This document shows positions 6,229-47,388 of a stretch of DNA of 55,640 nt, in pieces; position 1 is the first letter of the stretch, and each line of letters begins with the position of its first letter. The stretch is from Prevotella sp. (lineage in GTDB: Bacteria > Bacteroidota > Bacteroidia > Bacteroidales > Bacteroidaceae), in assembly GCA_017470345.1 (NCBI GenBank), contig JAFUEP010000032.1, positions 1-55,640 of the forward strand, given 5' to 3'. Below the pieces are notes generated by a model. The model did not search any database and had not been told where the DNA came from. It saw only the letters and a program-made list of their open reading frames with translations. A program made the translations under genes and the position numbers.

Positions 6229-6787
6229 CAGGACCACGAATTACGCGAATTAAACGAATTATTTCTAAAGACAACGAATTAAAACGAGGAGATTTTAAAA
6301 AAACAACGAATCAAAACGAGGAGATTTTAAAAAAACAACGAATCAAAACGAGGATATTTTTAAAAAACAACGAATTAAAACGAATTACACGAATTGACAC
6401 GAATTAAAACGTATTACACGAATTAAAACTCATTACACGAATTAATACCTATTGAACGAATTATTCGTGAAATTCGTCTTAATTCTTGTTTTAAAATGAA
6501 TTCGTGAAATAGAAAATAAATTCGTGACAATTCGTGAAATTCGTCTTAATTCGTTGTCTTAAAAACAATTCGTGAAATAAAAAATATTCGTGAAATAGAA
6601 AAGAAATTCGTGACAATTCGTGTAATTCGTCTTAATTCGTTGTCTTAAAAAAATTCGTGAAATAGAAAACAATTCGTGACAATTCGTGAAATTCGTCTTA
6701 ATTCGTTGTCTTAAAAACAATTCGTGATAATTCGTGGTCTTTAGAAAAATAATTCGTTTAATTCGGGTCATTCGTGGTCCTATAAAC
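6229..6787. repeat. Long ACGAATT / AATTCGT palindromic spacer, copy 1
   Basis: This fills the gene-free stretch 6220-6796. From 6229 to about 6460 the text is degenerate tandem ACGAATTA/ACGAATTAAAACGAATT units. From about 6462 to 6787 it is the reverse complement (AATTCGTGAAATTCGT, TTAATTCGTTGTC). The two ends pair best: GGACCACGAATTACGCGAAT at 6232-6251 matches, with few changes, the reverse complement of the last 50 bases (6735-6787). The RNA could fold into a very long irregular stem. I see no gene here. Copies at 21834-22246 and 37549-37912 use the same words. Confidence 0.9.
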
Positions 6788-6796
6788 ATAAAAACT

Positions 6797-8068
6797 ATGA
6801 AGAGATTTAAGATTTTGGTGTTATTAGCGGCGCTGTCCGTCGCGGAGTCATGGTCGCAGAGCGGCGTCTACGTCGGCGGCCACATCCGCCGCGAGCGGCC
6901 CGGAACGATAGAGAAGCTGCGGCAGTCGGGGTTCCGGTACGTCATCCTGTTCAACGTCAACGTCGAGGCCGACGGCACACTGACGACCGACGGCGAGACC
7001 ATCTGCCGCGACGGCCGCTACGTGTTCGATGAGACCCAGCCCCACTATGCCGACGACGTGCGGCTGCTGAAGACCGCCCCCACGGGCATCGAGCGCCTCG
7101 AGATCTGCATCGGCGGCTGGGGCAACACGTCGTATCAGAACATCCGCGCGCTCGTCAACAGCGATGGAACGGGCGAAAACAGCATCCTCCGCCGCAATTT
7201 CCGCGCCCTGAAGGAGGCGCTGCCCGACGTCGAGGCCGTCAACAACGACGACGAGCACGCCTACGACGCCGCGTCGGCCACGAAGTTCCACGTCATGATG
7301 TACGACCTGGGCTACCGCACCACCCTCGCTCCCTACATGAACAAGACCTACTGGCAGCAGCTCACGACGGCCCTCAACCGCCAGCGCCCCGGCGCCTGCG
7401 ACCGCATCATGATCCAGTGCTACGACGGCGGCGCCTATAACAACCCGAAGGACTGGCACCTCAGCGACGACATCCCCCTGCATGCCGGCCGCACCAACTA
7501 TCAGACGGACATGCAGACCTCCGTCAGACAGATGCAGACGTGGCGCGACGACTGCGAGGTCGAGGGCGGCTTCGTCTGGATATACAACGACGAGACGTGG
7601 TCGCTGCAGCAGTGGGCCGTGGAGATGAATCGCGTCTTCCCCAAGCACTCGGACGAGGGCGTCGTCACCTGCTATGCCGGCCGCGACTACACGGGCTTCA
7701 CCAACGTGCTGCCCGTCGGCCGCTACTGCGTCGGCGAGTTGGCCGCATGGGGCTTCGCGCCCCTCGGCATCGGCAACGTGCGCATCGCCGAGGGCTACGA
7801 GCTGACCCTCTTCACCGGCGACAACTTCACCGGCACGTCGCGCACCTACACCGACCCCGAGCCCGCCCTCGCAGCCTTCCGCAGCCGTGCCCGCTCGCTC
7901 ATCATCGCCCCGACGGGCCAGAGCGGCATCGTGACAATGAACAATGAACAATGTACAATGAACAATGAGGCATACGACCTGCAGGGCCGCCGCATCGACG
8001 CTACCCAACATCGCGGCATCATCATCACGCGCGACGCCCAGGGCCGCGTGCGCAAAGCCATCCGATAG
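6797..8068 (+). CDS. GH18-like TIM barrel with C-terminal beta/gamma-crystallin domain
   Basis: Secreted protein of 423 residues; the frame is open further upstream but that part is repeat sequence, and ATG 6797 gives a clean signal peptide (MKRFKILVLLAALSVAESWS). It has the two hallmark GH18 motifs: an SxGG-like strand (LEICIGGWGNTSY) and a DxxDxDxE-like motif read here as VEAVNNDDEH, with the likely acid Glu153 and one Asp kept but another Asp changed to Asn. QCYDGG may be the later YD motif. GH18 enzymes of PULs include endo-beta-N-acetylglucosaminidases, which would fit the neighbouring GH125, but specificity cannot be read from sequence. Residues about 290-370 look like a beta/gamma-crystallin domain (CYAGRDYTGF, LTLFTGDNFTGTSRTYTD). 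The C-terminus is a sorting-like tail (AYDLQGRRIDATQHRG). A low-complexity repeat is translated between these two parts. Confidence 0.7.
   Translation: MKRFKILVLLAALSVAESWSQSGVYVGGHIRRERPGTIEKLRQSGFRYVILFNVNVEADGTLTTDGETICRDGRYVFDETQPHYADDVRLLKTAPTGIERLEICIGGWGNTSYQNIRALVNSDGTGENSILRRNFRALKEALPDVEAVNNDDEHAYDAASATKFHVMMYDLGYRTTLAPYMNKTYWQQLTTALNRQRPGACDRIMIQCYDGGAYNNPKDWHLSDDIPLHAGRTNYQTDMQTSVRQMQTWRDDCEVEGGFVWIYNDETWSLQQWAVEMNRVFPKHSDEGVVTCYAGRDYTGFTNVLPVGRYCVGELAAWGFAPLGIGNVRIAEGYELTLFTGDNFTGTSRTYTDPEPALAAFRSRARSLIIAPTGQSGIVTMNNEQCTMNNEAYDLQGRRIDATQHRGIIITRDAQGRVRKAIR
7934..7968 (+). repeat. AACAATG phrase repeat inside the GH18-like gene
   Basis: Four close copies of ACAATGA/ACAATGT stand in a row and are translated as MNNEQCTMNNE, between the crystallin-like domain and the C-terminal tail. 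The repeat preserves the reading frame. The same style of low-complexity phrase otherwise occurs in spacers in this window. Confidence 0.85.
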
Positions 8069-8119
8069 CGCGACGGAGGATTGCGAAAAATCACGACAAA
8101 CACCTACCCCATTCCGCAG

Positions 8120-8199
8120 GAAGCGGTGCTTTTTCCTCCGAGAAGCGGTCCTTTTCACCCCGAAAAGCACCGCTTCTCTCATCGAAAAGCACCGCTTCT
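8120..8199. repeat. Four-unit 16-bp repeat element, copy 1
   Basis: Four 16-bp units lie at 8120-8135, 8141-8156, 8162-8177 and 8184-8199. The first two read (A)GAAGCGGTSCTTTTC and the last two are the reverse complement, GAAAAGCACCGCTTCT. Unit starts are 21, 21 and 22 bp apart, about two helical turns. It lies about 50 bp after the GH18-like gene stop. The halves can pair as a hairpin, so it could act as a terminator or a protein-binding array. Confidence 0.9.
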
Positions 8200-8368
8200 T
8201 TTTTAGCATTCCGTAAACATATTGATTTTCAACGAATTAGAAGACACTGCCAAATTATTCGGAAATTTTATTACAATTCCTCGTCCATTTATCTATATTC
8301 TTAAGCAGATGAACAATCATAGTTAGTAATATGCAAAAAAATAAATTGGTACAATTTGGCTGTCACTG

Positions 8369-8433
8369 TAGGAGGCGACGTGTCCCCACGTCGCACTTAA
8401 CGCAGGTGTCACGTGAGGACACGTGACCTCCTA
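8369..8433. repeat. Dispersed nested palindrome, copy 2 (diverged)
   Basis: GGAGGCGACGTGTCCCCACG at 8371-8390 begins the left arm, and the right arm (8408-8431) ends in ACGTGACCTCC. The outer stem is imperfect. It shares the left arm with the copy at 48763-48830 but has a different loop and a drifted right arm. It stands in the spacer between the GH18-like gene and the first susC; the rest of 8200-8368 and 8434-8560 holds no gene I can support. Confidence 0.8.
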
Positions 8434-8561
8434 AATCGTACCATGTTGTTTTTTTACGAACACACACGTCGCGTCAGCCCATCTTTTAAATCTTTTCAAT
8501 CTTTGTAAAAAATCATTGTGCACGATGAAACCGCGGTTTTTTGAACCTGCGAGCATGAAAA

Positions 8562-8596
8562 TTGACCCGATTGTTCTATCACTTTGACCCGATTGT
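8562..8596 (+). promoter_or_regulatory. Direct-repeat operator candidate upstream of susC 1
   Basis: TTGACCCGATTGT occurs exactly at 8562-8574 and again at 8584-8596, a 22-bp period (two helical turns). It ends 25 bp before the -7 box of the susC promoter. Direct repeats in this position are what an AraC-family domain, such as that of the hybrid regulator at 22390-26355, is expected to bind. The link to that regulator is inference. Confidence 0.65.
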
Positions 8597-8621
8597 GGCA
8601 GTCGTTGTGGGGGAAAAGGCG

Positions 8622-8629
8622 TATCTTTG
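8622..8629 (+). promoter_or_regulatory. -7 box of the susC 1 promoter
   Basis: TATCTTTG matches the Bacteroidota -7 consensus TAnnTTTG. No TTTG stands 19-21 bp upstream, so the -33 element is poor, which fits a promoter that needs the activator bound at the adjacent direct repeats. Confidence 0.7.
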
Positions 8630-8677
8630 CAGCCGAAAAAATTCCTAAAACTAACCAAACCATTCAAAATGTAAGAC

Positions 8678-11600
8678 ATGAAAGAAAAGAGAGTAACATG
8701 GAAACGCGTCGCGTTGCTCGTGCTGCTTGCGCTCCCGATGGCCTTGACTGTGTCGGCGCAGAGCGTGAAGGGCACCGTGACTGACGCACAGAACGGTGAG
8801 CCGCTCATCGGCGTCACCGTGAAGACCCTCGACGGGACGGGCATGGCCGTGACCGACTTCGACGGTCACTACGACGTGAAGGCCGACGGCCAGGCGCGCC
8901 TGCAGTTCAGCTACGTGGGCTATGAGAACGTCGTGGTGAGCGTCAACGGGCGTCGGACGATCGACGTGAAGATGTCGACCGACGTCAACACGCTCGAGGA
9001 CATCGTCGTCATCGGCTACGGTGTGCAGAAGAAGTCGGACCTGACGGGTGCCGTCGCCGTGGTCGACATGAAGGAGGCGAAGAAGACGGCCGCCACGAAT
9101 ATCTACGAGATGCTGCAGGGCCAACTGCCGGGCGTGACGGTCAACACGACGGGTGCGCCGGGCCAGATGAGCCAGGTGCAGATCCGCGGTGTGGGCTCGT
9201 TCAACACGGTCGGTCCGCTCTACGTGCTCGACGGCATGATTGTCAACGACGTGAACCACCTGAACCCCAACGAGATTGAGTCGATGCAGGTCCTGAAGGA
9301 CGCCTCGGCCGCCGCCATCTACGGTGCGCGCGGTGCCAACGGCGTGATCATCATCGAGACGAAGAAGGGCAAGAAGGGTGAGCCGACGCTCGACGTGTCG
9401 GCCACGTGGAGCGTGTCTGACATGCCCCGCAAGATCGACATGATGTCGGCCACCGACTTCATGCGCTATAACGAGCAGGCCTACCTGAACGCCGGCGAGA
9501 CATGGCCGGCCGCGCAGTATGCCGTCGACATGATCGGCCAGCCGATTCCGAACACCGACTGGCAGAAGGCGAAGTTCCAGACGGGCTTCACGCAGGACTA
9601 TAATGTAATGTACGCGCAGGGGTCCGACAACGTCAACATGTCGATCGGCGGCGGCTATATGGACCAGACGGGCGTCATCAGCGGCCCTGAGTATCAGCGC
9701 TTCACGGCCCGGCTGAACGCCGACGCCACGTATGGCATCCTGAAGATCGGGGCCAACTCGACGTTCCAGCACACCGTCCACCACGAGACGACGGGCGGCA
9801 GCTTCTGGAACGCCCTGTCGATGCCCAGCGTCATCCCCGTCTACGACCCTGAGGAGGGCTCGCAGCGCGGCGGCTACGGCTATGGCAACGGCAACTTCCT
9901 GACCTATACGAGCAACCCCATCGGCGAGCAGCAGCGCTATCAGGACCTGTCGGTCAACAACCGCGTCATCGCCAACGCCTATGCCGAGCTGAAGCTCCTG
10001 AAGCACTTCACGTATAAGATCAACTTCGGTGTCGACGCCTGGTTCGGTCGCCACAAGAACTTCGACCACGGCTACACCGTCCGCATGAACTCCATCGAGA
10101 CCCACTTCACCGACGCGCTCTACGACAACCGCGACCAGCGCGCCACGACCATCCTCGACAACACGCTGACCTACATGAACAGCTTCGGCAAGCACAACGT
10201 CACGGCCATGATCGGCCACACCGCCGAGGACGTCAACTGGCACTGGCTCGAGGCCGTCGGCTACGACCAGCAGGTCGACGGGCTGGTCGAGATCGACCTC
10301 TCGAACGACAAGCACAACATGTCGGGCTCGGAGCAGGAGCGCCGCCAGCTGAGCTACATCGGACGTATCGACTACAGCTACGCCGACCGCTACCTGGCAC
10401 AGTTCAACTTCCGCTCCGACGGCTCGTCGAAGTTCGGCCCCAGCAACCGCCGCGGCTACTTCCCCTCGCTGTCGCTCGGATGGCGCATCTCGGAGGAGAA
10501 GTTCTTCGAGCCCGCCCGCAAGGTGGTCGACAACCTGAAGCTGCGCGCATCGTGGGGTAAGGTCGGCGACATGCAGTCGCTCGGCAACTACAGCTATATC
10601 CCCACCATCGACCACTCGGGTCCCTACGAGGGCTTCTACGCCATCTTCGGCCCGTCGAAGAACGAGACGGTGCTCAGCGGCGCCACGCAGAGCGCCATGA
10701 CCAACGTTGACCTGGGATGGGAGACGAAGACGACGACCAACGTCGGACTGGACTTCAACATGCTGGGCAACCGCCTGTTCGGTACCATCGAGTGGTTCTA
10801 CGCCAAGTCGACCGACCTGCTGCTCAACAAGCCCGAGCCGTGGTCGACGGGCGTCGGCTCCGTATGGACCAACTACGGCGAGATGCGCAACCAGGGTCTG
10901 GAGCTCAACATCGGCTGGCGCGACCAGGTCGGCGAGCTGAGCTACAGCGTCGCTGCCAACCTGTCGACCATCAGCAACAAGGTGCTCCGCATGGGTGAGG
11001 CCTTCAACATGCAGTCGTACACCCGCACCGAGGTGGGCCGCAGCGTCAGCGACTTCTATCTCATCCCCTTCGACGGCATCTTCCAGTCGATGGACGAGGT
11101 CTATGCCCACACCGCAACGGTCGACGTCGACGGCAAGCAGACCGTCCGCATCATCCAGCCCGACGCCAAGCCCGGCGACGTGCGCTACGTCGACGTCAAC
11201 GGCGACGGACTCATCGACAGCAACGACCGCACGTGGTGCGGCTCGCCGCTGCCCAAGCTGGAGGTCGGACTGAACGCCTCGCTGCAGTGGCGCGACTTCG
11301 ACTTCAACATGTTCTGGGCCGGCAAGTTCGGACACAAGATCTACAACCAGCTGCGCAAGAACCTGCTCAACTTCAACGTCGACAACATCCCCGCCGACGT
11401 CGAGCCCTGGACCTGGGACAACCCCTCCACCGAGTATCCGCGCATGCTGGCCGGCACCACCTCGAACAACATCGAGTATTGCGACCGCTTCCTCGAGAAT
11501 GCATCCTACTTCCGCCTGAAGAACCTGCAGCTGGGCTACACCCTGCCCCAGGCCATCACGAAGAAGATCTACGTGCAGAAGCTGCGTGCCTACGTCAGCG

Positions 11601-11740
11601 CCACCAACCTGCTGACCATCACCGGCTATAAGGGCTACGACCCCGACATCATCAGCGGCAGCGTCTACGCCATGGGCATCGACAGCGGACAGTATCCCTC
11701 GTCGCGCCAGGTGAACTTCGGCCTCCAGGTGACGTTCTAA
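8678..11740 (+). CDS. susC: SusC-family TonB-dependent outer-membrane transporter 1
   Basis: Outer-membrane glycan importer of 1020 residues that works with the SusD lipoprotein encoded next to it. It has a signal peptide to about residue 28 (MALTVSAQ), a carboxypeptidase-regulatory-like domain (GTVTDAQNGEPLIGVTV, FSYVGYENVVV), a conserved segment NTLEDIVVIGYGVQKKSDLTG leading to the plug (LQGQLPGVTVNTTGAPGQ, IRGVGSFNTVGPLYVLDG, LKDASAAAIYGARGANGVI) and a long barrel ending in aromatic QVTF. Length is normal. The start ATG at 8678 is 49 bases after the -7 box. This is presumably the first gene of the main PUL transcript; a spacer of ATAACG repeats separates it from susD. Confidence 0.95.
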   Translation: MKEKRVTWKRVALLVLLALPMALTVSAQSVKGTVTDAQNGEPLIGVTVKTLDGTGMAVTDFDGHYDVKADGQARLQFSYVGYENVVVSVNGRRTIDVKMSTDVNTLEDIVVIGYGVQKKSDLTGAVAVVDMKEAKKTAATNIYEMLQGQLPGVTVNTTGAPGQMSQVQIRGVGSFNTVGPLYVLDGMIVNDVNHLNPNEIESMQVLKDASAAAIYGARGANGVIIIETKKGKKGEPTLDVSATWSVSDMPRKIDMMSATDFMRYNEQAYLNAGETWPAAQYAVDMIGQPIPNTDWQKAKFQTGFTQDYNVMYAQGSDNVNMSIGGGYMDQTGVISGPEYQRFTARLNADATYGILKIGANSTFQHTVHHETTGGSFWNALSMPSVIPVYDPEEGSQRGGYGYGNGNFLTYTSNPIGEQQRYQDLSVNNRVIANAYAELKLLKHFTYKINFGVDAWFGRHKNFDHGYTVRMNSIETHFTDALYDNRDQRATTILDNTLTYMNSFGKHNVTAMIGHTAEDVNWHWLEAVGYDQQVDGLVEIDLSNDKHNMSGSEQERRQLSYIGRIDYSYADRYLAQFNFRSDGSSKFGPSNRRGYFPSLSLGWRISEEKFFEPARKVVDNLKLRASWGKVGDMQSLGNYSYIPTIDHSGPYEGFYAIFGPSKNETVLSGATQSAMTNVDLGWETKTTTNVGLDFNMLGNRLFGTIEWFYAKSTDLLLNKPEPWSTGVGSVWTNYGEMRNQGLELNIGWRDQVGELSYSVAANLSTISNKVLRMGEAFNMQSYTRTEVGRSVSDFYLIPFDGIFQSMDEVYAHTATVDVDGKQTVRIIQPDAKPGDVRYVDVNGDGLIDSNDRTWCGSPLPKLEVGLNASLQWRDFDFNMFWAGKFGHKIYNQLRKNLLNFNVDNIPADVEPWTWDNPSTEYPRMLAGTTSNNIEYCDRFLENASYFRLKNLQLGYTLPQAITKKIYVQKLRAYVSATNLLTITGYKGYDPDIISGSVYAMGIDSGQYPSSRQVNFGLQVTF

Positions 11741-11742
11741 TG

Positions 11743-11880
11743 ATCGGAATAACGGAATCACGATATAACGATATAACGAAAACTTCGGAATAACGATATA
11801 ACGAAATAACGTCATAACGAGAAAATCGGAATAACGGAATAACGTCATAACGAAAAAATCGGAATAACGAAAAAAGAAAC
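11743..11880. repeat. ATAACG phrase repeat between susC 1 and susD 1
   Basis: Degenerate tandem copies of GGAATAACG, ATATAACG, AAATAACG and GTCATAACG fill the spacer from just after the susC stop to the susD start. Unlike many other repeats here the units all point the same way. A second stretch of the same words lies at 19735-19829. Confidence 0.85.
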
Positions 11881-11884
11881 AACA

Positions 11885-13525
11885 ATGAATAAGAAAAGAT
11901 TCAAGCATATCCTCGCCTCCTGTTCGGTGTGTTGCGGCATTGCCGCCACAGCCCCGCTGCTGACCTCGTGCGGCGACGACTGGCTCTCGCTGAGCGACCC
12001 CAACCTCGAGACGGCCGACACCTTCTGGAAGACGGCTGACCAGTTCAACGAGGGACTCACCGCCGCCTACTCCACCTGGCGCCGCCCCGGCTACTTCAGC
12101 CGCTGGTTCCAGGTGCTCACCATCCTGCGCAGCGACGAGGGATGGAGCAACAGCCCCAACCCCGAGTTCATCGGCGACGCCAACTTCGTCATGTCGTCCT
12201 ACAACTACGACAGCAACGAGGGTCTCAACCTGCCCTGGCAGGCCATGTACAACAGCCTCTACTACGTCAACCAGGTCATCGACAACATGAACGACCACGG
12301 CTACGAGCTCTTCTCGCAGGAGGAGGCCGACCGGCTCCTCGGTCAGGGCTACTTCATCCGCGGCGTCGCCTTCTGGGCCATCGCCGGCATCTACGGCCGC
12401 GGCCCGCTGCAGACCAGCAGCGTCGAGGTCAACGGCCCCATCGGCTCGCAGGAGGACCTCTATAAGCAGGCACTGGCCGACTTCACCCGCGCCGCTGAGC
12501 TGCTTCCCACGAAGTGGCCCGCCGCCGAGGCCGGACGCGCCACGAAGGGCGGCGCCCTGGGCATGATGGCCCGCATGAACATGCAGCTGGCCGGCATGAA
12601 GTGCCACCGCCCGTGGGACACGGCCAACCAGGACCCCGCCCAGGCCAAGGCCTACTGGGAGGCTGCCAAGAAGAACATCGAGGACATCTTCGCACTGGGC
12701 ATCTACGACCTCGTGCCCAACTGGCTCGACAACTTCACCGAGGCCAACGAGAACAACCAGGAGTCGCTCTTCGAGATCAACTTCAAGGAGGGCACCGTCA
12801 ACGGCAAGGAGGTGGGCAACCAGCGCCCCAAGTTCCTCGGGCTCTACGCCGGCTCTGGCTCCGGCCTGTCGTGGGACGACGGCTCGGCCCGCGAATGGCT
12901 GCTCGACGCCTTCAACGAGGAGCGCGACAAGGACGGCAACGTCGACATGCGCAAGTTCCACACCCTCTTCTACTACGATGAGAGCGAGCCCGAGACCACC
13001 ACGGCCGTCTACTACGGCAAGACGTGGACCGAGTGGAACTACGTCGAGCCCTTCCAGAAGAAGTGCTACTGGAAGAAGTACACCAGCGTCGAGAACGATC
13101 CCAACGCCACGGGCGAGGGCTACGTCACGGGTGTCAACATCCGCATCCTCCGCCTGGCCGACGTCTACCTGATGTATGCCGAGGTGCTCAACGAGCTGGG
13201 CGGCGACCGCGCCGTGGCCGTCGAGTATATCAACAAGGTGCGCCGCCGCGTCAACATGGCCGACCTCGACGCCGCCCGGTTCCAGAACTACGACGCCCTG
13301 CTCAACCAGATCAAGCACGAGCGCCTGCTGGAGCTCTGCGGCGAGTGCGAGCGATGGTTCGACCTCGACCGCTGGGGCGACATCCACGACCAGACGAAGA
13401 TCAACGAGCTGGCCGAGCGCGACGAGGACTTCAAGAACTATCGCCTGGGCATCAGCCACCTCTGGTGCATCCCCAACCACGAGATCAACCTGCGTCCCGA
13501 CCTGACCCAGAACCCGGGATATTGA
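11885..13525 (+). CDS. susD: SusD/RagB-family glycan-binding lipoprotein 1
   Basis: Surface glycan-binding lid of the SusC transporter, 546 residues. Lipoprotein signal with LTSC (Cys29), followed by the typical SusD start (GDDWLSLSDPNLETADTFWKTADQFNEGLTAAY). TPR-like segments and the conserved ends are visible: YLMYAEVLNELGG, AVEYINKVRRRVNM, LLNQIKHERLLELCGECERW and WCIPNHEINLRPDLTQNPGY. Length is typical. Its TGA stop lies inside the first unit of a GAAGATTGAAAATT repeat that fills the following spacer. Pairing with the upstream susC is certain from context. Confidence 0.95.
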   Translation: MNKKRFKHILASCSVCCGIAATAPLLTSCGDDWLSLSDPNLETADTFWKTADQFNEGLTAAYSTWRRPGYFSRWFQVLTILRSDEGWSNSPNPEFIGDANFVMSSYNYDSNEGLNLPWQAMYNSLYYVNQVIDNMNDHGYELFSQEEADRLLGQGYFIRGVAFWAIAGIYGRGPLQTSSVEVNGPIGSQEDLYKQALADFTRAAELLPTKWPAAEAGRATKGGALGMMARMNMQLAGMKCHRPWDTANQDPAQAKAYWEAAKKNIEDIFALGIYDLVPNWLDNFTEANENNQESLFEINFKEGTVNGKEVGNQRPKFLGLYAGSGSGLSWDDGSAREWLLDAFNEERDKDGNVDMRKFHTLFYYDESEPETTTAVYYGKTWTEWNYVEPFQKKCYWKKYTSVENDPNATGEGYVTGVNIRILRLADVYLMYAEVLNELGGDRAVAVEYINKVRRRVNMADLDAARFQNYDALLNQIKHERLLELCGECERWFDLDRWGDIHDQTKINELAERDEDFKNYRLGISHLWCIPNHEINLRPDLTQNPGY

Positions 13526-13588
13526 AGATTGAAAATTGAAGATTGAAAATTGAAGATTGAAGATTGAAAATTGAAAATTGAGAATCAG
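13522..13588. repeat. GAAGATTGAAAATT phrase repeat
   Basis: About eight tandem TTGAAGA/TTGAAAA units run from the susD stop codon to the next start codon. The units are directly repeated. The stop codon of susD is the TGA of the first unit. Confidence 0.9.
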
Positions 13589-13590
13589 AT

Positions 13591-14655
13591 ATGAAGAATA
13601 ACATCCTGAAACACATCACCGGCGCGCTCTGCCTGGCTGCCGTGGCAGCCACGATGAGCGGCTGCGCCGGCATGGACGGCGACGGCATCGACACCGTCGT
13701 CTGGGAAGGCTCGACCAATCCTGACAACACCGGATTCCACAACCCCGTGTGGGAGCCCTCGCTCGACGGCGGCACCATCTTCAAGGGAGCCAGCTCCTAC
13801 GTCGCCATCAGCAGCACCACCCAGTGGGCTGCCGGACTGACCTACTACTGCCCCGTGCTGACGTCGAACAACCTGACCACATGGAACAAGTCGACGGCCG
13901 ACGCCTTCACCGAGGCCAACGTGCCCACCGGCGCCGACGGCGCACGCCTCAGCTCGCTCACGGTCGACTTCGCCCGCACCTACAGCGGCAACAAGTACTG
14001 GCTCTTCTACACCATCGAGGGCCAGAACGCCATCTGCTGCGCCAGCTCGTCGTCGCCCCAGGGCGTCTACACCCCGCTGGGCACCGTCGAGCTGAAGAAC
14101 GACCCGCAGGGCCTCGCCCACCCCTTCTTCTTCGTCCAGTCGAAGAACTATTATCTCTGCTACACGACCTCTGACGGCGTCTATCTGCAGAAGGTGGGCC
14201 TCAGCAAGAACGGCGCCACCGTCGGCTCGGCCAACGACCCCGTCAAGATAGCCAGCAGCGCCTTCAAGGAGGTGGCCATTTACGTCAACTCGTCGGACGA
14301 CGTCTATCTCTTCGGCACCGTCGACGGCGAGATCCGCTATGCCCGCGCCGCCGCTGCCACAGGACCCTACCTCGACCGTCAGGGCGCCGACATCGCACAG
14401 TCGGGCCGCGGCGAGGCACTCATCAGCGCCAACGAGGCCTACAGCACCGTCTCGAACCCCATGCGCGCCTTCCTCAACTCCGAGGGCACCCACCTCTACC
14501 TCTGCTACAACGCCCAGAAGGCCGGTCAGCCCACGATGGCCAGCGGCTTCGCCCGCAAGCCCGTCTTCGTGCAGCCCTTCGCCATGGGCGAGGACGGCTG
14601 GCTCGAGGGCACGGCCACGCCCCGCGAGGGCTGGACCACCCCAACGTTCGAGTAG
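13591..14655 (+). CDS. GH43-like beta-propeller lipoprotein
   Basis: A 354-residue lipoprotein (MSGC, Cys25). The body has the repeated short-strand pattern of a five-bladed propeller of the GH43/GH117/DUF4975 kind: NPVWEPSLDGGTIFKG, YYCPVLTSNNLTTWNK, RTYSGNKYWLFYTIEGQNAICCASSSSPQGVYTPLG, HPFFFVQSKNYYLCYTT, YLFGTVDGEIRYARA. I cannot place a convincing set of GH43 catalytic acids, since the expected Asp-Pro start, the mid Asp and the Glu motif are not clearly present, so it may bind glycan at the surface instead of cutting it. Its place directly after susD is where surface glycan-binding proteins or surface enzymes usually sit. Family assignment is tentative. Confidence 0.6.
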   Translation: MKNNILKHITGALCLAAVAATMSGCAGMDGDGIDTVVWEGSTNPDNTGFHNPVWEPSLDGGTIFKGASSYVAISSTTQWAAGLTYYCPVLTSNNLTTWNKSTADAFTEANVPTGADGARLSSLTVDFARTYSGNKYWLFYTIEGQNAICCASSSSPQGVYTPLGTVELKNDPQGLAHPFFFVQSKNYYLCYTTSDGVYLQKVGLSKNGATVGSANDPVKIASSAFKEVAIYVNSSDDVYLFGTVDGEIRYARAAAATGPYLDRQGADIAQSGRGEALISANEAYSTVSNPMRAFLNSEGTHLYLCYNAQKAGQPTMASGFARKPVFVQPFAMGEDGWLEGTATPREGWTTPTFE

Positions 14656-14762
14656 GCCCGGAGGGCAAAGCGAGGAGCCACCTATTTGTAAAAGAAATTC
14701 TGAATCAATCGCCGACAATGCGTAATTATCTGACATACAACGACTTAGATTTTTGCACGAAG

Positions 14763-14843
14763 AGAAGTGCCGCTTTTCGATGCAAGAAGTGCCGCTTTTC
14801 CATCCGAAAAGGACCGCTTCTCGCTCAGAAAAGGGCCGCTTCT
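14763..14843. repeat. Four-unit 16-bp repeat element, copy 2
   Basis: Units at 14763-14778, 14785-14800 (both AGAAGTGCCGCTTTTC), 14806-14821 and 14828-14843 (GAAAAGGACCGCTTCT and GAAAAGGGCCGCTTCT). Starts are 22, 21 and 22 bp apart and the orientation is forward, forward, reverse, reverse, as in the copy at 8120. It lies in the 302-bp spacer 14656-14957. The rest of that spacer is an AT-rich leader (TTTTTTATTTAATTAAACC) in which I see no clear -7 box. Confidence 0.9.
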
Positions 14844-14957
14844 CTGCCGGCGGTCAGCGCGATGTAAGGATTTTTCGGAATCCGCACCCTCTCCAAAAGG
14901 AATAAACCGACAAACCAATCTTTACTGTTTTTTATTTAATTAAACCACTTATCAATT

Positions 14958-16904: not shown

Positions 16905-16987
16905 AAAAATCATCCTCAGTGAGGAGTTGGGAGGCTACGATTTCTTCCGGCTCCTCACTTCGCAAACCTGACGATTCAATATAATGT

Positions 16988-17150
16988 ATACAAGCTTCGC
17001 ATGTTTGGAGTGAAAAGAAGTGATAGGAAGTGAAGGGGAGTGAAAAGGACGTCACTCTATTCCTCGATGGTTGCGATAGAACTGACGTCCCCTTCACTCC
17101 CCATTCACTCCCCATTACCACCCCTTCACTCCATGCAAGCTAAGCTTGCG
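16988..17150. repeat. AGTGAAG palindromic spacer
   Basis: The left half has GGAGTGAAAAGAAGTGATAG and further AGTGAAG words, then GGACGTCACTC. The right half answers with GACGTCCCCTTCACTCC, CATTCACTCCC and CCTTCACTCC. The outer ends CAAGCTTCGCATG and CATGCAAGCTAAGCTTG also match in inverted orientation. It occupies the spacer between the FG-GAP gene and the small Ig-like gene. Confidence 0.85.
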
Positions 17151-17166
17151 AAAGCTGAATAGAATT

Positions 17167-17685
17167 ATGAAAAGAGTCCTACTATTCCTGCTGGCCATCG
17201 TGGCTACAGCCGCAGCCGGCGCACAGACGGTCATCGACGTCGCTTTCGAACAGTATCCGCCCCTGCGGGCCGTGGCTCAGACGGTCAGCGTAGAGGTGCC
17301 GGCCGAGGGCATCACCATCGGCAGCGACGTCAGCGTAGAGGGCGGCGACGGCTCTTACTCCTACCTCTGGACCAACGCCGCCTCCGAGACCCTCAGCACC
17401 CAGAAGACACTGACCATCACCGAGGCCGGCGACTACTACCTGCGCGTCAGCGACGGCCACCAGTGCCAGGTCAGCGTCCACTTCACGGCCACCGCCCCGG
17501 CCGCCGTCAGCAGCATCCCCGCCGAGGGGCTGCGCCAGGTCCGCATCTTCACCGCTGCGGGCACACTCATCGAGAAAACCAGCGCCACCACCGGCTATGC
17601 CGACCGTCTCCCGTCAGGCGTCTACGTGGTGTGCTTCATCTATAGCGACGGCCACGAGGCCATCCGCAAAATCCAAATCCCCTGA
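17167..17685 (+). CDS. Small secreted Ig-like protein with sorting-like tail
   Basis: A 172-residue secreted protein. ATG 17167 gives a signal peptide (MKRVLLFLLAIVATAAAGAQ); a TTG seven codons earlier is less likely because it lies in repeat sequence. Residues about 40-110 form a PKD/SprB-like Ig-fold (GGDGSYSYLWTNAASETLS, YYLRVSDGHQCQVSV), and the end (RIFTAAGTLIEKTSATTGYA, LPSGVYVVCFIYSDGHEAIR) is like a type IX secretion C-terminal domain. Only 6 bases separate it from the Asp-box gene, so the two are cotranscribed. I cannot assign a function; a short surface adaptor or binding module is plausible. Confidence 0.75.
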   Translation: MKRVLLFLLAIVATAAAGAQTVIDVAFEQYPPLRAVAQTVSVEVPAEGITIGSDVSVEGGDGSYSYLWTNAASETLSTQKTLTITEAGDYYLRVSDGHQCQVSVHFTATAPAAVSSIPAEGLRQVRIFTAAGTLIEKTSATTGYADRLPSGVYVVCFIYSDGHEAIRKIQIP

Positions 17686-17691
17686 ACTGAC

Positions 17692-19719: not shown

Positions 19720-19734
19720 CAATCCGAAGCGTCG

Positions 19735-19829
19735 AAATAACGATATAACGATATAACGAAAAGTCGAAATCACGAAATAACGTTATACCGAAATAACGAT
19801 ATCACGAAATAACGAAAATAAAAAGAACA
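19735..19829. repeat. ATAACG phrase repeat, second stretch
   Basis: AAATAACG, ATATAACG, GTTATACCG and ATATCACG units tile the spacer before the next start codon, in the same orientation as the stretch at 11743-11880. The start codon at 19830 comes directly after AAAATAAAAAGAACA, an AT-rich leader normal for this phylum. Confidence 0.85.
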
Positions 19830-21833
19830 ATGAACATCACGAAGAAAATCGCACTGAGCGCAGCCATGCTCCTCATGGCCGACGCCGCCGCGGCCCTCGA
19901 GCCCGTCTATCAGCTCAGCCTGAAGCAGCCCGGCAACGCCGCCACCACCCAGACCGTCAGACCGGGACAGCAGGGACTGCCCGTCAGCCTCACCCAGCAG
20001 ACGGCCGCCGACGGCGACGGCCAGCAGCTGCTCACCGTCACACTGACGGCCCGCGAGCGCGTCTACTTCAACCTCGGCATCTCGCTGCCCACCGGCATCC
20101 AGACCAGCGAGGCCGACTTCTATCTGCCCGGCTTCTGGTATCACAAGAACCTGCGCTCGCCCCGCGAGGCTCCCTCGTTCCACACCTCGAAGAGCTGGAA
20201 CGTGCGCGACGACCGCCTCTCGTCGCCCCTGACCGGCGTCATCGACCTCACGTCGGGCCACACCGTCAGCGTGCTGCGCTGCGTCGAGCAGCCCGGCTGC
20301 GACGCACTGACCACCCATCAGGAGGGCGAAGTCATCCTGGGCGGGCCTACGACCATCGGCTACGTGGGCTTCGACGGCGAGAGCGGCCGCGCCCTTCTCA
20401 CCTTCGGCTATCCCTACATCGAGACGCCCAAGCGCTACATCCGCAAGCTGACCCTCACGCCACCCATCACCGCCTTCGCCCGCCTGGACAAGGGCCAGAG
20501 CATCACCCTGCGCTGGATCGTCCGCGAGGCTGAGGCCAAGGACTACGGCCAGTTCGTCTCGCAGACATGGCAGCACTGCATGGACCAGCTGCGCCCCGAG
20601 CCCATCCGTCCGCTCTACTCGCCCGACGAGATGAAGGCCCAGCTGAGCAACTACTTCCGCCGCGGCTACGTCGACAAGTATGCCCTCAAGTTCCACTCCG
20701 GCCACGGACTGCGCTGCGACGACTGCGTGCCCGTCGACCACGTGCAGCTGGGCTTCTGCGGCCGCGTGCTGCTCAACGGATTCAACGCCCTCGAGTATGG
20801 CGAGCAGCACGGCGACCAGGAGCTCGTCGGCATGGGCCGCGCCATCTTCGACTCGTGGCTCGAGCACGGCTTCACCCAGCGCGGCTACTTCAAGGAGGAC
20901 ATGCATATCGCACAGGGCATCCCCGCCGACGACGACTGCATCCACAGCATCCGCCAGCAGTCGGAGGCCGTCTACGCCGTGCTCCACTATCTGCGCTACG
21001 AGAAGCTGCAGGGCCGCAAGCACAAGGCATGGGAGCAGAAGATGCGCCTGCTGCTCGACCGCATGGTAGAGCTGCTCAAGCCCGACGGCCACTACGCCCG
21101 CAAGTTCCGCGACGACGGCTCCGACGTCGACGCCTCGGGCGGCTCCACCCCCTCGGCCACGTCGACCCTCGTCATGGGCTACAAGTACTTCAAGGACCGT
21201 CGCTATCTCGAGGCCGCACGCCGCACCGTCGACTATCTTGAGAAGAACATCATCGCCCCGAGCGACTACTTCTCATCGACACTCGACGCCAACTGCGAGG
21301 ACAAGGAGGCCGCCATCAGCGCCGTCACCGCCACCTACTACATGGCCATGATGACCCGCGGCCAGGAGCGCCAGCACTACGTCGACCTCTGCCGACAGGC
21401 CGCCTACTTCGCCCTCTCGTGGTACTACCTCTGGGACGTGCCCTTCGCACAGGGACAGATGCTCGGCGACCTCGGATTCCAGAGCCGCGGATGGAGCAAC
21501 GTCTCGGTGGAGAACAACCACATCGACGTCTTCGTCTTCGAGCTGCCACACATCGTGGAGTGGCTCGCCCGCGAGACGGGCGAGGACCGGCTGCAGCGCA
21601 TCCACGACGTCATATTCTCGTCGCTCAACCAGCTCCTGCCCACGCCCGACCGCCTCTGCGGCATCGGCGTCCCGGGCTTCAACCCCGAGGTCGTCCAGCA
21701 CACCTGCTGGGACTACGGCCGCAACGGCAAGGGCTTCTACAACGACATCTTCGCCCCCGGCTGGACCGTCGCCTCCCTCTGGGAGCTCTACAGCCCCCAC
21801 CGCACCGCCGATTTCCTCACGGCCAAGAAATAG
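19830..21833 (+). CDS. Secreted alpha/alpha-barrel protein of unrecognised family
   Basis: A 667-residue secreted protein (signal MNITKKIALSAAMLLMADAAAA). The first 220 residues look like a beta-sandwich (ERVYFNLGISLPTGIQ, TVSVLRCVEQPG). From about 240 there is a run of helices with Gly/Asp/His-rich turns typical of (alpha/alpha) barrels: QTWQHCMDQLRPEP, HSGHGLRCDDCVPVDH, DDDCIHSIRQQSEAVYAVLHY, DDGSDVDASGGSTPSATS, WSNVSVENNHIDVFVFELPH, VVQHTCWDYGRNGKGFYND. Such barrels are used by GH88/GH105, GH127 and several lyase families. I cannot place it in one, and candidate acids such as those in CDDC or DDDC are only guesses. Its place inside the PUL supports a carbohydrate-active role. An ACGAATT palindrome follows directly after the stop. 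Confidence 0.6.
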   Translation: MNITKKIALSAAMLLMADAAAALEPVYQLSLKQPGNAATTQTVRPGQQGLPVSLTQQTAADGDGQQLLTVTLTARERVYFNLGISLPTGIQTSEADFYLPGFWYHKNLRSPREAPSFHTSKSWNVRDDRLSSPLTGVIDLTSGHTVSVLRCVEQPGCDALTTHQEGEVILGGPTTIGYVGFDGESGRALLTFGYPYIETPKRYIRKLTLTPPITAFARLDKGQSITLRWIVREAEAKDYGQFVSQTWQHCMDQLRPEPIRPLYSPDEMKAQLSNYFRRGYVDKYALKFHSGHGLRCDDCVPVDHVQLGFCGRVLLNGFNALEYGEQHGDQELVGMGRAIFDSWLEHGFTQRGYFKEDMHIAQGIPADDDCIHSIRQQSEAVYAVLHYLRYEKLQGRKHKAWEQKMRLLLDRMVELLKPDGHYARKFRDDGSDVDASGGSTPSATSTLVMGYKYFKDRRYLEAARRTVDYLEKNIIAPSDYFSSTLDANCEDKEAAISAVTATYYMAMMTRGQERQHYVDLCRQAAYFALSWYYLWDVPFAQGQMLGDLGFQSRGWSNVSVENNHIDVFVFELPHIVEWLARETGEDRLQRIHDVIFSSLNQLLPTPDRLCGIGVPGFNPEVVQHTCWDYGRNGKGFYNDIFAPGWTVASLWELYSPHRTADFLTAKK

Positions 21834-22246
21834 AATTACGCGAATATTTGTCGACCACGAATTACGCGGAGATTTGTCGACCACGAATTACGCGAATTAA
21901 ACGAATTATTTTTAAGACAACGAATTAAGACGAATTACAAGAATTATACGAATTAAAACGAATTGCACGAATTTATAAAGGATTTCACGAATTGGCTGCG
22001 CACAAACATTTTGCATAGCTCCTGTCGCAGACAAGAATAAATTAGTGAAATACAATATAATTCGTGCAATTCGTTTTAATTCGTGAAATTCGTTTTAATT
22101 CGTGAAATCAATTACAATTCGTGAAATCAATTTTAATTCGTACAATTCGTGCAATTCGTCTTAATTCGTTGTCTTAAAAAAATTCGTTTAATTCGAGTAA
22201 TTCGTGGTCAATAAAAAATCGTGTCATTCGTGGTCGACAAAGTTCG
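21834..22246. repeat. Long ACGAATT / AATTCGT palindromic spacer, copy 2
   Basis: The left half (21834-21985) has GTCGACCACGAATTACGCG twice, then AAGACAACGAATTAAGACG and related words. The right half (22030-22246) is their reverse complement, ending ATTCGTGGTCGACAAAG. The GTCGACCACGAAT ends are exact inverted repeats. It fills most of the 556-bp gap 21834-22389. No gene is visible. The first words are close to those in the copy at 6229-6787. Confidence 0.9.
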
Positions 22247-26355: not shown

Positions 26356-26387
26356 GAGATAAATATAGAGATAAATGCCCGAGAGTT

Positions 26388-26533
26388 CAACGCCCCCCTG
26401 CCCCCCTCTAGTCTTAGAGGGGGAATTGGATACCACCGCAGGAGCAGATGAGCGCAGTGACACCAGCGGCTGTGGGCGGCATGCACGCTATCTGACTCCC
26501 CCTCTAAGATTAGAGGGGGGCAGGGGGGCGTTG
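26388..26533. repeat. 36-bp inverted repeats with GC-rich arms around a 74-bp core
   Basis: 26388-26423 and 26498-26533 are reverse complements with one mismatch in 36. Each arm contains CGCCCCCCTGCCCCCCTCTA followed by TTAGAGGGGG, so each is also partly self-complementary. The core (26424-26497) has no start codon with a sensible frame. It stands between the regulator and the flavoprotein gene; it could terminate the PUL transcript or be a small non-autonomous insertion. Confidence 0.85.
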
Positions 26534-26588
26534 AAATCTCGGAAGCTTATCACCACATTGAGAAAGATAATAGAAATTGCCCATTAAA

Positions 26589-27772: not shown

Positions 27773-28060
27773 GGAAACGAATGGGCACGAATGAAGGAAA
27801 ATTCATTTATGAAGCATTCATGGACCATTCATGATTATTACATGTAGCGCCGCAGGCAGAAAAAATTTCTTCTCTTGCCTGCGGCGCTACATATAATCCA
27901 CACAAATAATCCATGTAATTAATCATATAATTTCATCGTGAAGGTAATCATATAATTTCATCGTGAAGGGAAAACGAATGGGCACGAATGAAGGATAATT
28001 CATTTATGAAGCATTACATGGACCATTCATGATTATTATATGTAGCGCCGCAGGCAGAAT
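27773..28060. repeat. Duplicated GAATGGGCACGAATGAAGG spacer unit with TGTAGCGCCGCAGGCA hairpin
   Basis: 27773-27861 and 27969-28060 are near-identical direct copies, including CGAATGGGCACGAATGAAGG, CCATTCATGATTATTA and TGTAGCGCCGCAGGCAGA. Copy 1 ends in a perfect 17-bp hairpin (27842-27858 with 27876-27892, ATGTAGCGCCGCAGGCA). Between them, ATCATATAATTTCATCGTG is tandemly doubled (about 27922-27967). This makes up the first part of the 672-bp gene-free gap 27768-28439; I see no gene in it. Confidence 0.85.
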
Positions 28061-36508: not shown

Positions 36509-36765
36509 TGTTCTAGGGATTTAGGGGGGATAATTTTTATTCTAGGGATTCTGGGATTTAAGGAGAGGCTGTATGATTTTATTCTAAGGATTTTGGGATT
36601 TTGGGAGGGGCACTGCGTGCCATTACGTTTTTTTGGCTGTCCGTATTGGCTCAGCGTGCTTGCCCAAAAAATCCCAAAATCCTAAAATCCTTAGAATAAA
36701 ATATCCTTAGAAAAAATATCCCTAGAAAAAATATCCCTAGAATAATAATAAAAGATATCCTCAGA
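36509..36765. repeat. ATCCCAAAATCC palindromic spacer
   Basis: The left part (36509-36612) repeats CTAGGGATT, CTGGGATTTAAGG and AAGGATTTTGGGATTTTGGG. The right part (36661-36765) gives the reverse complement, AAATCCCAAAATCC, AATCCTTAGAATAAAATATCC and AATATCCCTAGAA. A short GC-rich core (about 36613-36660) separates them. This fills the 369-bp gap 36400-36768 apart from the promoter; I see no gene. Confidence 0.85.
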
Positions 36766-37548: not shown

Positions 37549-37912
37549 TTTAAAACAACGAATTAAGACGAATTACACGAATTGACACGAATTATATTTC
37601 ATTTCACGAATTGTTATTTATTTTACGAATTGCTATTTATTCCACGAATTTTTTTATTTCACGAATTGTTTCTGATTTCACAAATTGTTTCTGATTCCGC
37701 TTATTATTATTTATTTTATTTTCCTGCGATCAGTGGGATTTGCCGCTTGTGGATGAAAATTGTCATTTCGTTTAGATTCACATTCCGTTTTTAATTCGTT
37801 TCAATTTGTGTAATATATTTAATTCGTGACATAAATAACAATTCGTGAAATGAAATATAATTCGTATCAATTCGTGAAATTCGTTTTAATTCGTTGTTTA
37901 AAAAATTATTCG
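37549..37912. repeat. Long ACGAATT / AATTCGT palindromic spacer, copy 3
   Basis: AACAACGAATTAAGACG at 37553 onward, then CACGAATTATATTTCA... pairs over roughly 90 bases with the right end (37820-37905), which reads TATAATTCGTATCAATTCGT and TTAATTCGTTGTTT. This copy has the best matching arms. It fills the 402-bp gap 37504-37905 and runs into the GH31 gene: the last GH31 codons (AAC AAC GAA TAA on the minus strand) are the repeat word AACAACGAATAA. Confidence 0.9.
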
Positions 37913-45923: not shown

Positions 45924-45929
45924 ATTAAC

Positions 45930-46045
45930 AAAATGAAAGGTGAAAAGTGAAAAATATGAATAGACTTTTCCCATAATATCAAGCGCCAAAGCTAATCATA
46001 TCTTTCATCTGTCATCTTTCATCTGTCATTTAACCAATTAAACGA
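45930..46045. repeat. GTGAAAAGTGAAA / TTTCATCTGTCAT phrase spacer
   Basis: ATGAAAGGTGAAAAGTGAAA at 45934 onward, followed after a short core by ATCTTTCATCTGTCATCTTT and CATCTGTCATT in opposite sense. The halves are loosely complementary. It fills the spacer between susD 2 and the SusE-like gene. Confidence 0.65.
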
Positions 46046-46054
46046 TTTAGCAAT

Positions 46055-47200
46055 ATGTATAGGAATATCAGTCATTCACTCCTGGCAGCACTGACCCTCG
46101 GCGCCATGGCCACCGCGTTCAGCGCCTGCAACGAGGACCCCGAATACTTCGAGCTGCCCACGTATCCCGACGAGATGCACATCCGCAGCTCCGTCAGCGA
46201 CATCGTCCTCAACAAGGGCATCGCCGACCAGGCCGCCGTCACCTTCACCTGGGACCGCGCCACCAGCCCCCTGTCCAGCGCCGACAAGGTGAGCTATAAG
46301 CTCTGCCTCTACCCCTCGGCCACGAAGGACCAGAAGTCGGAATACATCGCCACCGACGAGACACAACTCACGCTGACCCACGACCAGCTCAACTCGATGG
46401 TGGCCCGCTGGGCCATGCCCGGCGAGCAGGTGCGGCTGACGGCCCAGGTGCTCAGCATCGTCGAGAACGAGACGCGCTACGTGCGCCCCGAGGTGTCGAC
46501 CGTCGAGCTCACCGTCACCGGCTACGAGAAGTATCCGCCCTACCTCTACATGACCATGACCGACGCCTCGGGACTCGTCACCACCCAGCGCCTCGAGCAG
46601 CGACAGCTCGGCACCGGCATCTATGAGGCCACGCTCAACCTGACGCCCTGCTCCTTCCACTTCACCACCTCCGAGGAGCCCTACCCCGCCTACGGCATGG
46701 GCGACGGTCCCGAGAAGATGGCATACGTCACCGAGGGCCCCGTCACCGACTTCACCTGCGACGTCACCGGCCAGCGCACCGTCATCGTCGACACCAACAC
46801 GCCCTACGTCGACTGCCGCCTGCTCGACATCGTCCAGCTGCCCGTCGCCGGACAGATCTGGATCTGCGGCAACGGATGCTCCGTAGGATGGAACACGAAC
46901 ACGGCCGAGGGACGCATGACCATGACCGGCACGGCCCGCGAGCCCTACTACTACTCGTGGACGGGCGACTTCACCGCCGGCGGCGAGCTGAAGATCGGCC
47001 TGGGCAACGGCTGGGGCGACCAGTTCTTCTATGCCCCCGTGGAGAATGCCGACCCCCTGACCGACCATCGCCTGCTGATGTATCGCCTGCAGGATGCCGG
47101 CGGCGACCTCAAGTGGGTGCCCACGGTCAGCGGCCGCTACACGTTCACCCTCTGCCTGCTCGCCACCGACATGCACACCTCGTTCGAGCCGGCGAACTAA
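46055..47200 (+). CDS. SusE-like surface glycan-binding lipoprotein
   Basis: A 381-residue lipoprotein (FSAC, Cys25). The N-terminal domain follows the SusE pattern (SSVSDIVLNKGIADQAAVTFTWDRAT, then TLTHDQLNSMVARWAMPGE), then an Ig-like strand set (TVELTVTGYEKYPPYLYM). Residues about 265-381 form a SusE/F-type binding module: GQIWICGNGCSVGWN, YSWTGDFTAGGELKIGLGNGW, GGDLKWVPTVSGRYTFTLCL. It binds the glycan at the cell surface alongside SusD. It follows susD 2 directly and is separated from the GH43 gene by a TAGAGTG repeat. Length and domain order fit SusE-positioned proteins. Confidence 0.85.
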   Translation: MYRNISHSLLAALTLGAMATAFSACNEDPEYFELPTYPDEMHIRSSVSDIVLNKGIADQAAVTFTWDRATSPLSSADKVSYKLCLYPSATKDQKSEYIATDETQLTLTHDQLNSMVARWAMPGEQVRLTAQVLSIVENETRYVRPEVSTVELTVTGYEKYPPYLYMTMTDASGLVTTQRLEQRQLGTGIYEATLNLTPCSFHFTTSEEPYPAYGMGDGPEKMAYVTEGPVTDFTCDVTGQRTVIVDTNTPYVDCRLLDIVQLPVAGQIWICGNGCSVGWNTNTAEGRMTMTGTAREPYYYSWTGDFTAGGELKIGLGNGWGDQFFYAPVENADPLTDHRLLMYRLQDAGGDLKWVPTVSGRYTFTLCLLATDMHTSFEPAN

Positions 47201-47212
47201 GTGAAAAGTTCT

Positions 47213-47388
47213 TCTAAGTATAGAATGTAGAGTGTAGAATGTAGAGTGTAGAGTGTAGAGTTTGCTACCGCTCTACAAAACAATGCAGAATGGCGGTAGC
47301 AAACTCTACACTCTACATTCTACCCTCTACACTAAAGAAAGAATGGCGGTAGCAAACTCTACACTCTACATTCTACCCTCTACACTGA
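47213..47388. repeat. TAGAGTGTAGAATG palindromic spacer with a 47-bp direct repeat
   Basis: The left half repeats TAGAATGTAGAGTG and ends GTTTGCTACCG. The right half holds two exact 47-bp copies (47287-47333 and 47340-47386) that begin AGAATGGCGGTAGCAAACTC and are its reverse complement. One left arm thus faces two alternative right arms. It fills the spacer between the SusE-like and GH43 genes. Confidence 0.9.

What the first reader, a model, noticed from the sequence alone, without database searches (positions are those of the whole stretch)
6229..47388. About twelve spacers carry different low-complexity phrases with the same design
Phrases at 6229, 7934, 11743, 13522, 16988, 19735, 21834, 27773, 36509, 37549, 45930 and 47213 have different words but share traits: 6-20 bp degenerate units, a place directly after a stop codon, and often a mirrored second half. 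That looks like one process (template-switching, a dedicated polymerase or REP-type transposase) writing different texts, or a regulatory layer tuning mRNA stability between PUL genes.
Basis: partly seen in the sequence, partly recalled or inferred. Interest (0 to 1): 0.8.

Follow-up and report, generated by a model that had tools for sequence, protein, structure and literature searches.

The report
In-frame hairpin elements in Prevotella
Several of the odd repetitive 'phrases' between genes belong to families of short hairpin-shaped DNA elements, and more than a third of the examined copies of the best-defined family, found mostly in rumen Prevotella genomes, lie in frame inside genes, where they would add a loop of about 35 residues to a protein.

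Summary
The phrases are real: 11 of 12 lie in spacers, one (7934) in a gene, most begin just after a stop codon, and 8 of 11 spacers are mirrored beyond shuffles. They are not one text but several families. The 47213 phrase is a copy of a dispersed palindromic element, here called H2: four heptamers (ARTGNAR), head TTTGCTRCCGC, a loop of commonly 22 nt, then the mirror image; about 104 bp with sharp edges. Its head pair occurs in 66 of 396 genus genomes, 24 times in this one. Of 162 copies examined, 60 are open-frame through element and flanks; 59 of 60 use one phase and have loop length 1 mod 3, against 36 of 102 other copies for the loop. ArgC here carries 35 extra residues that a 95%-identical sister lacks. 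In the spacer at 47201 the sister keeps the head but uses another heptamer word. Fibrella, of another class, has the same head with heptamer arms. It works like Rickettsia palindromic elements; ten full-text searches listed no such element in Prevotella. How it moves is unknown; Y1 transposases do not track it. Translation and regulation were not tested.

The parts
47231..47333 (.).
47346..47386 (.). second copy of mirrored head and arm (half element) right behind it
45930..46029 (.). H1-type hairpin: heptamers of the AAARRTG kind, head like ATATGATTAGACTT, mirrored arm; the sister lacks the left half
7934..7968 (+). heptamer array ACAATGA inside gene 6818-8068, in frame as MNNEQCTMNNE
13521..13585 (+). 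unmirrored heptamer array ATTGAAA/ATTGAAG; overlaps the stop codon of the SusD-like gene and fills the spacer
16988..17132 (.). mirrored AGTGAAAAG-type element; this spacer holds a different palindrome (CCCCAACCCC type) in the sister
11743..11875 (+). unmirrored octamer array ATAACGNN filling the spacer between TonB-dependent-receptor (SusC-like) and SusD-like genes
19731..19817 (+). unmirrored octamer array ATAACGNN filling a co-directional spacer
6229..6790 (.). family A hairpin (ACGAATTA ... TAATTCGT); spacer 598 nt here, 457 nt in the sister
21833..22231 (.). family A hairpin with CTGCGCAC core; spacer 622 nt here, 661 nt in the sister
37549..37895 (.). family A hairpin
36509..36742 (.). 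mirrored octamer-type hairpin (GGGATTT ... AAATCCC)
27773..28032 (.). hairpin element with TGTAGCGCCGCAGGCA stem and a direct second copy of its first part
26356..26588 (.). spacer with a palindrome with CCCCCCTG arms; the sister has a second, partial copy

Best explanation
The mirrored phrases are copies of several dispersed palindromic element families. The best defined, H2 (window 47231-47333), is a small element without a gene of its own: four 7-nt units, an 11-nt head, a loop and the mirror image, about 104 bp. Shown here: sharp edges; dispersed copies in many genomes; exchange of word or element at one site between sister species; and copies open in frame inside conserved genes, nearly always in one phase. 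Inferred: it spreads by an unknown copying process; copies survive where they do little harm, mainly just behind stop codons and in convergent spacers, or in frame in variable protein loops, where they are translated into about 35 residues (consensus S-x-E-C/L-R-V-K/E-S-x-E-F-A-T/A-A ... A-N-S ... T-L-H-S); the arms then change by slippage and arm-to-arm copying, so that the heptamers of a copy share a word. The unmirrored octamer phrases are more likely plain tandem arrays that grow and shrink by slippage.
For: Edges: information content over 80 arms (40 copies) is 1.17 bits at -30 and at most 0.27 from -31 outward. Distribution: head pair in 66 of 396 genus genomes; the reversed control pattern in 4, once each. 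In-gene copies: 38 of 78 and 22 of 84 in a second set are open through the element plus 165 nt on each side; phase the same in 37 of 38 and 22 of 22; loop 1 mod 3 in 37 of 38 and 22 of 22, against 18 of 40 and 18 of 62 other copies. Dinucleotide-shuffled windows are open in 2 of 162. In-frame stops, read inward: 1 of 60 translated 5' arms, 41 of 60 mirrored 3' arms, 166 of 204 arms of other copies. 20 of the 59 in-gene reading frames were scanned and all 20 match Pfam families. ArgC: 356 residues here, 321 in the sister; 16 of 20 relatives with a match are short at that loop. Site turnover: 21 of 27 array spacers differ by 10 bp or more from the sister, 7 of 29 others, p 1.3e-4. Word coherence. 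A copy of H2 in a sister stretch is 85.6% identical to one here.
Against: No target-site duplication: identical flanks of 4 bp or more in at most 2 of 78 copies at any boundary from 27 to 37, 0 at 30; no carrier enzyme; mobility is inferred. In-gene copies were chosen as open windows, so the low stop count in 5' arms follows partly from the choice. Several in-gene copies are at what looks like one site in related species, so the 60 are not independent. Of 58 copy-and-strand cases with both 300-nt flanks open in the same frame, 35 are open through and 23 are blocked; in 15 more the flanks are in different frames. In the predicted ArgC model residues 104-139 are below pLDDT 50, but so are 197-221 and 353-356. 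Nearly all carriers are metagenome-assembled. No protein evidence.
Confidence: 0.8

Rival explanations
1. Each phrase arises on the spot by replication slippage and template switching, with no dispersed element; likeness between sites is convergence on low-complexity words.
For: The metA octamer spacer differs from the sister mainly in copy number (261 against 220 nt, aligned identity 0.99); the octamer arrays are unmirrored; words are uniform within a copy.
Against: Shared head and sharp edge at -31, copies in many genomes, presence of one element and absence in the sister. It remains likely for the unmirrored octamers.
Confidence: 0.2
2. The hairpins are selected RNA devices at gene ends (bidirectional terminators, mRNA 3' stabilisers or RNase III sites) whose text is free as long as the fold stays.
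For: Arrays lie after stops and make up 25.4% of convergent, 14.4% of co-directional and 5.9% of divergent spacer bases; ten spacer copies fold at -33 to -69 kcal/mol; an A5 run before the head, giving T5 after the hairpin, is in 25 of 80 arms of other copies and 7 of 76 arms of in-gene copies (within the GAA words 25 of 50 against 7 of 29, p 0.03).
Against: 60 of 162 copies are in frame in genes; turnover between sisters; divergent spacers may be closed by promoters. No expression data.
Confidence: 0.3
3. They are REP/BIME sequences moved by a RAYT or other IS200-type Y1 transposase.
For: Small palindromes after stops and in convergent spacers, sometimes in genes, as described for REPs (passages of PMC3733652).
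Against: PF01797 matches in 21 of 31 carriers with 3 or more copies and 15 of 30 non-carriers; none in the sister, which has 17 copies (carriers were on the whole less complete genomes).
Confidence: 0.08

Closest known systems
Rickettsia palindromic elements (RPE)
   Same: Palindromic elements of about 150 bp, many of them in frame in unrelated genes, each with a conserved peptide (passages of the review PMC10969869; the original papers of Ogata and others were not read).
   Different: Other phylum; arms made of tandem heptamers whose word varies between copies; sequence homology to RPE families not established.
Intragenic REPs (GTAG and CGTC superfamilies)
   Same: Small palindromes, mostly after stops, some inside genes (passages of PMC3733652).
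   Different: H2 has heptamer arms and one coding phase; no link to Y1 transposases here.
BrickBuilt MITE of Porphyromonas gingivalis
   Same: Bacteroidales element that joins tandem repeats with inverted-repeat ends (passages of PMC4596501).
   Different: 23-nt repeats and always intergenic; H2 is a full palindrome of about 104 bp and often in genes.
TAACTGA heptamer repeats (Beggiatoaceae, Cyanobacteria, five Bacteroidetes)
   Same: Heptamer arrays in spacers that put stops in all three frames (passages and outline of PMC4679880).
   Different: One fixed word, rarely inverted, mostly just before start codons.

Membership tests
Protein-coding palindromic elements (RPE kind) | palindromic element dispersed in many copies | tested here: met
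Protein-coding palindromic elements (RPE kind) | in frame in unrelated conserved genes, one phase | tested here: met
   60 of 162 open through, 59 of 60 in one phase; 20 of 59 frames scanned, 20 of 20 with Pfam families
Protein-coding palindromic elements (RPE kind) | orthologous gene without the insert in a close relative | tested here: met
   ArgC, (one gene)
Protein-coding palindromic elements (RPE kind) | protein made with the insert | not testable with these tools
   no proteome at hand
Rickettsia RPE families proper | sequence homology to known RPE families | tested here: inconclusive
   two typed consensus peptides gave no NCBIfam match at E up to 1; whether that library holds RPE models was not checked
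MITE | terminal inverted repeats | tested here: met
   both arms keep the same register to position -30
MITE | target-site duplication | tested here: not met
   at boundary 30, identical flanks of 2 bp in 6, 3 bp in 3 and 4 bp or more in 0 of 78
REP with RAYT | cognate Y1 transposase tracks the element | tested here: not met
   21 of 31 carriers, 15 of 30 non-carriers, none in the sister
REP with RAYT | GTAG or CGTC tag at the foot of the hairpin | not tested
   not examined as such

The most novel reading that the evidence does not exclude
Rumen Prevotella, and in spacers also Fibrella of another class, carry a guild of selfish palindromes, some of which are built to be readable: H2 and at least three further kinds (APSNLPPLGEASSAE..., GAPLSPPEG...EAPSGAVGGA, SEKWEVRSEK...SHLSPLTSHL) sit in frame in genes, so that dozens of proteins per genome wear loops made from selfish DNA, and one ArgC loop has been hit by different kinds in different species. 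Each H2 copy rewrites its eight heptamers in one word by self-templated copying across the hairpin, which keeps the mirror while the text drifts.
Probability: 0.4. Interest if true: 0.85.

Novelty: new variant of a known kind. Interest (0 to 1): 0.75.

Why it matters
Protein-coding palindromes were called a unique feature of Rickettsia (title in the reference list seen; paper not read). A second lineage, with sister species that differ at the same sites, makes old questions testable: how such elements move, why one reading phase is used, and what an added loop of 35 residues does to an enzyme. Cultured carriers exist: Prevotella communis E15-14 (four copies seen, none open-frame) and Fibrella. 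It also matters for gene annotation and protein modelling in rumen genomes.

Tried and rejected
Rfam on the window: nothing at the gathering threshold. Plasmid collection, distant blastn with the 21834 spacer: no match. Orthologues of the window's SusD gene in 60 genus genomes: 22 with a match including this one, best other 35% identity, so no spacer comparison there. Stop codons in all three frames as the purpose of the words: noticed, not properly tested. Family A and H1 as coding elements: 0 of 17 and 0 of 8 places open through in 852 kb. Y1 transposase: no association (my notebook entry gives 20 and 16 instead of 21 and 15, which is wrong). Density survey: arrays cover 10.1% of spacer bases here, 9.9% in the sister, 0-9.0% in 16 other genus members and 0-7.0% in 20 members of the order, one stretch of at most 20 kb each: too little for a ranking.

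Rows left out: in the second set 13 duplicates, 11 copies with short flanks and 7 with non-heptamer arms were dropped before counting; 3 of the 7 (Oscillospiraceae, Chloroflexi, Sphingobium) are open in the same phase and look like chance pattern matches in genes. The 84 counted are 79 from records titled as Bacteroidales members or uncultured bacterium, 4 from Fibrella and 1 viral. The ArgC alignment used 13 relatives; one search lists the junction in all 20 relatives with a match, of 23 searched. Part of the sister's stretches were picked because they held repeat matches, which may favour array-rich spacers. Paper searches; none of the listings showed a protein-coding palindrome in Prevotella or Bacteroidales; supplements and subscription journals were not searched.
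Full report
What was checked first. All twelve phrases are in the sequence. With a gene call made by script, eleven lie in spacers and one, 7934, lies inside a gene and is read in frame. Eight begin between 3 nt before and 16 nt after the end of the upstream stop codon. In the 345.9-kb sample of this genome (the window plus 19 stretches) tandem arrays of period 5-30 number 104 in 178 spacers, against 4 to 9 in ten dinucleotide shuffles; of 113 arrays in genes most have periods divisible by three, but 14 have period 7. Inverted repeats exceed all ten shuffles in 41 of 58 array spacers and in 34 of 97 other spacers. In the window 8 of 11 phrase spacers are mirrored; those of 11743, 13522 and 19735 are not.

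Several families, not one. Reading the spacers (its output was cut in the middle) shows: family A (ACGAATTA outside-in, mirrored, often with a CTGCGCAC core); octamers ATAACGNN, on the coding strand in the spacers seen and not mirrored; 21-22-mer arrays of small palindromes; CCCCAACCCC and CCCCCCTG palindromes; and heptamer-armed hairpins with constant heads, H1 (ATATGATTAG) and H2 (TTTGCTRCCGC). Family A and H1 were not found open-frame (0 of 17 and 0 of 8 places).

A sister species shows turnover. G296 is 97% identical at metA and 95-96% over window 11000-20000 where it aligns. Its contigs C3 and C5 have the lengths of CACZBS010000003.1 and CACZBS010000005.1, isolate RUG12472, titled uncultured Prevotellaceae bacterium, so I take the window's genus to be Prevotella or near it. 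Of the spacers that could be paired, 21 of 27 with arrays and 7 of 29 without differ in length by 10 bp or more (Fisher p 1.3e-4). In the spacer 47201-47438 the sister has the same head but AGTGAAA-type heptamers instead of GTAGAGT. At L014:2527 the sister has head H2 where this genome has H1. At 16905-17166 it has a CCCCAACCCC palindrome in place of the AGTGAAAAG element; that palindrome is also in the sister, and missing here, at 4629-4701 and 14656-14993.

H2 is a defined element. Aligned on the head, 80 arms keep the heptamer register to position -30 and lose information at -31, so that the unit is 30 + 11 + loop + 11 + 30 nt, 104 for the commonest loop of 22. Its head pair occurs in 66 of 396 genus genomes, 24 times here and 17 times in the sister; the reversed pattern occurs in 4 genomes, once each. 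Single heads: 16 in 346 kb here, 29 in 507 kb of the sister, 1 in 412 kb of other genus loci, 0 in 385 kb from the order. The titles shown are mostly Prevotella, Prevotellaceae and Bacteroidaceae genomes, many with rumen, reticulum, omasum or abomasum in the title, plus the isolate P. communis E15-14. Fibrella aquatilis and F. rubiginis (Cytophagia) have the same head between arms in the same register with other words, AGTGATG and AGTGGTA (4 copies counted, none open-frame). One viral contig has a copy. Within a copy heptamer position 5 is the same in 0.72 of unit pairs of an arm and 0.70 across arms, against 0.41 between copies; position 7 gives 0.64, 0.62 and 0.43; the other positions show little excess.

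H2 sits in genes, in frame. In this genome it lies, without breaking the frame, in an argC gene (L025), an ABC transporter ATPase (L021) and a GH106 gene (L013), and in three further stretches fetched for their copies (L218, L219, L220). Over 78 distinct copies with enough flank, 38 are open for 165 nt beyond both edges; 37 of 38 read the head as F-A-T/A-A, and 37 of 38 have a loop of 1 mod 3, against 18 of 40 other copies. The second set gives 22 of 84 open, 22 of 22 in that phase and with that loop length, against 18 of 62. Read inward in that phase, the translated 5' arm holds a stop in 1 of 60, the mirrored 3' arm in 41 of 60, arms of other copies in 166 of 204. The 5' figure follows partly from the choice of open windows; the single phase and the loop rule do not. 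Shuffled windows are open in 2 of 162; windows 650 nt away are open in 206 of 305, so that the surroundings are mostly coding. Pfam matched all 20 of the frames scanned, of 59: RNB nuclease, RsmB/F methyltransferase (two insertions in one gene), GMP synthase, carbamoyl-phosphate synthase, GH2 beta-galactosidase type, GH43, fucosidase, M24 peptidase, MenC-like, and others.

The insertion is visible against relatives. ArgC has 356 residues here and 321 in the sister, which is 95% identical; the difference is one block between DFR and VYGLPE. Of 20 relatives with a match, 16 are short there. The other four hold other inserts: a heptamer-like remnant SEELRVKD (G141), HPQPLPKGG, which fits a CCCCAACCCC palindrome (G080), APSNSPERGGE...PSGGQRGA, which resembles the APSNLPPLGE family (G384), and one unclassed (G299). 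In the predicted structure residues 104-139 are below pLDDT 50, as are 197-221 and 353-356 (alignment of 14 sequences). In the ABC ATPase the sister has another heptamer-like text in the same loop, 51 nt shorter, and another genome, G023, has H2 there.

Other coding palindromes. In 283.8 kb of genes there are 11 inverted repeats of score 15 or more, against 1 in codon-shuffled genes: three H2, two APSNLPPLGEASSAE-type, two GAPLSPPEG-type, one SEKWEVRSEK-type, three not classed.

How it probably works. The element is short, has no gene, and Y1 transposases do not track it (21 of 31 carriers, 15 of 30 non-carriers). No target duplication was found. Its movement is therefore open. Spread by copying, survival behind stops or in tolerant protein loops, and later concerted change of the arms is the reading that fits best; the first and third steps, and translation, are inferred.

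Limits. The assembly is 61.6% complete and only part was read; genes were called with a script of my own and start codons are approximate; copies at one site in related species are not independent; 23 of 58 copy-and-strand cases whose flanks are open in one frame are blocked.

Noticed in passing
window 8120-8168, 14765-14841; L096, L100, L116, L109: Arrays of period 21-22 (about two helical turns) whose unit often holds a small palindrome; the word differs from locus to locus and genome to genome.
   Followed up: no
L021:8132-8225, L021:15422-15509, L019:12608-12710, L026:14375-14549, L026:13712-13822: Further palindromes in frame in genes, of at least three other kinds; L021:15422 has copies at 80-89% identity elsewhere in the sister.
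   Followed up: partly
L259, L273, L298, L338, L340: Fibrella (Cytophagia) spacer copies with the H2 head and heptamer arms in other words: transfer between classes or an old family.
   Followed up: partly
L151:82-3045: In G172 an H2 element lies between CarA-type and CarB-type domains in one open frame, as if it had joined two genes.
   Followed up: partly
L019:10037-10297 (metA spacer): The octamer array lies inside an inverted repeat TGTTATGGCGGTAT/ATACCGCCATAACA and is about 40 nt shorter in the sister.
   Followed up: partly
L343:3673-3705: One H2 copy in a viral contig, IMGVR_UViG_3300028886_000526, between two frames: a possible vehicle.
   Followed up: no
L198, L207, L336; L162, L163; L193, L274: H2 at what looks like the same site of the same gene in different genomes: old insertions or preferred sites.
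   Followed up: no
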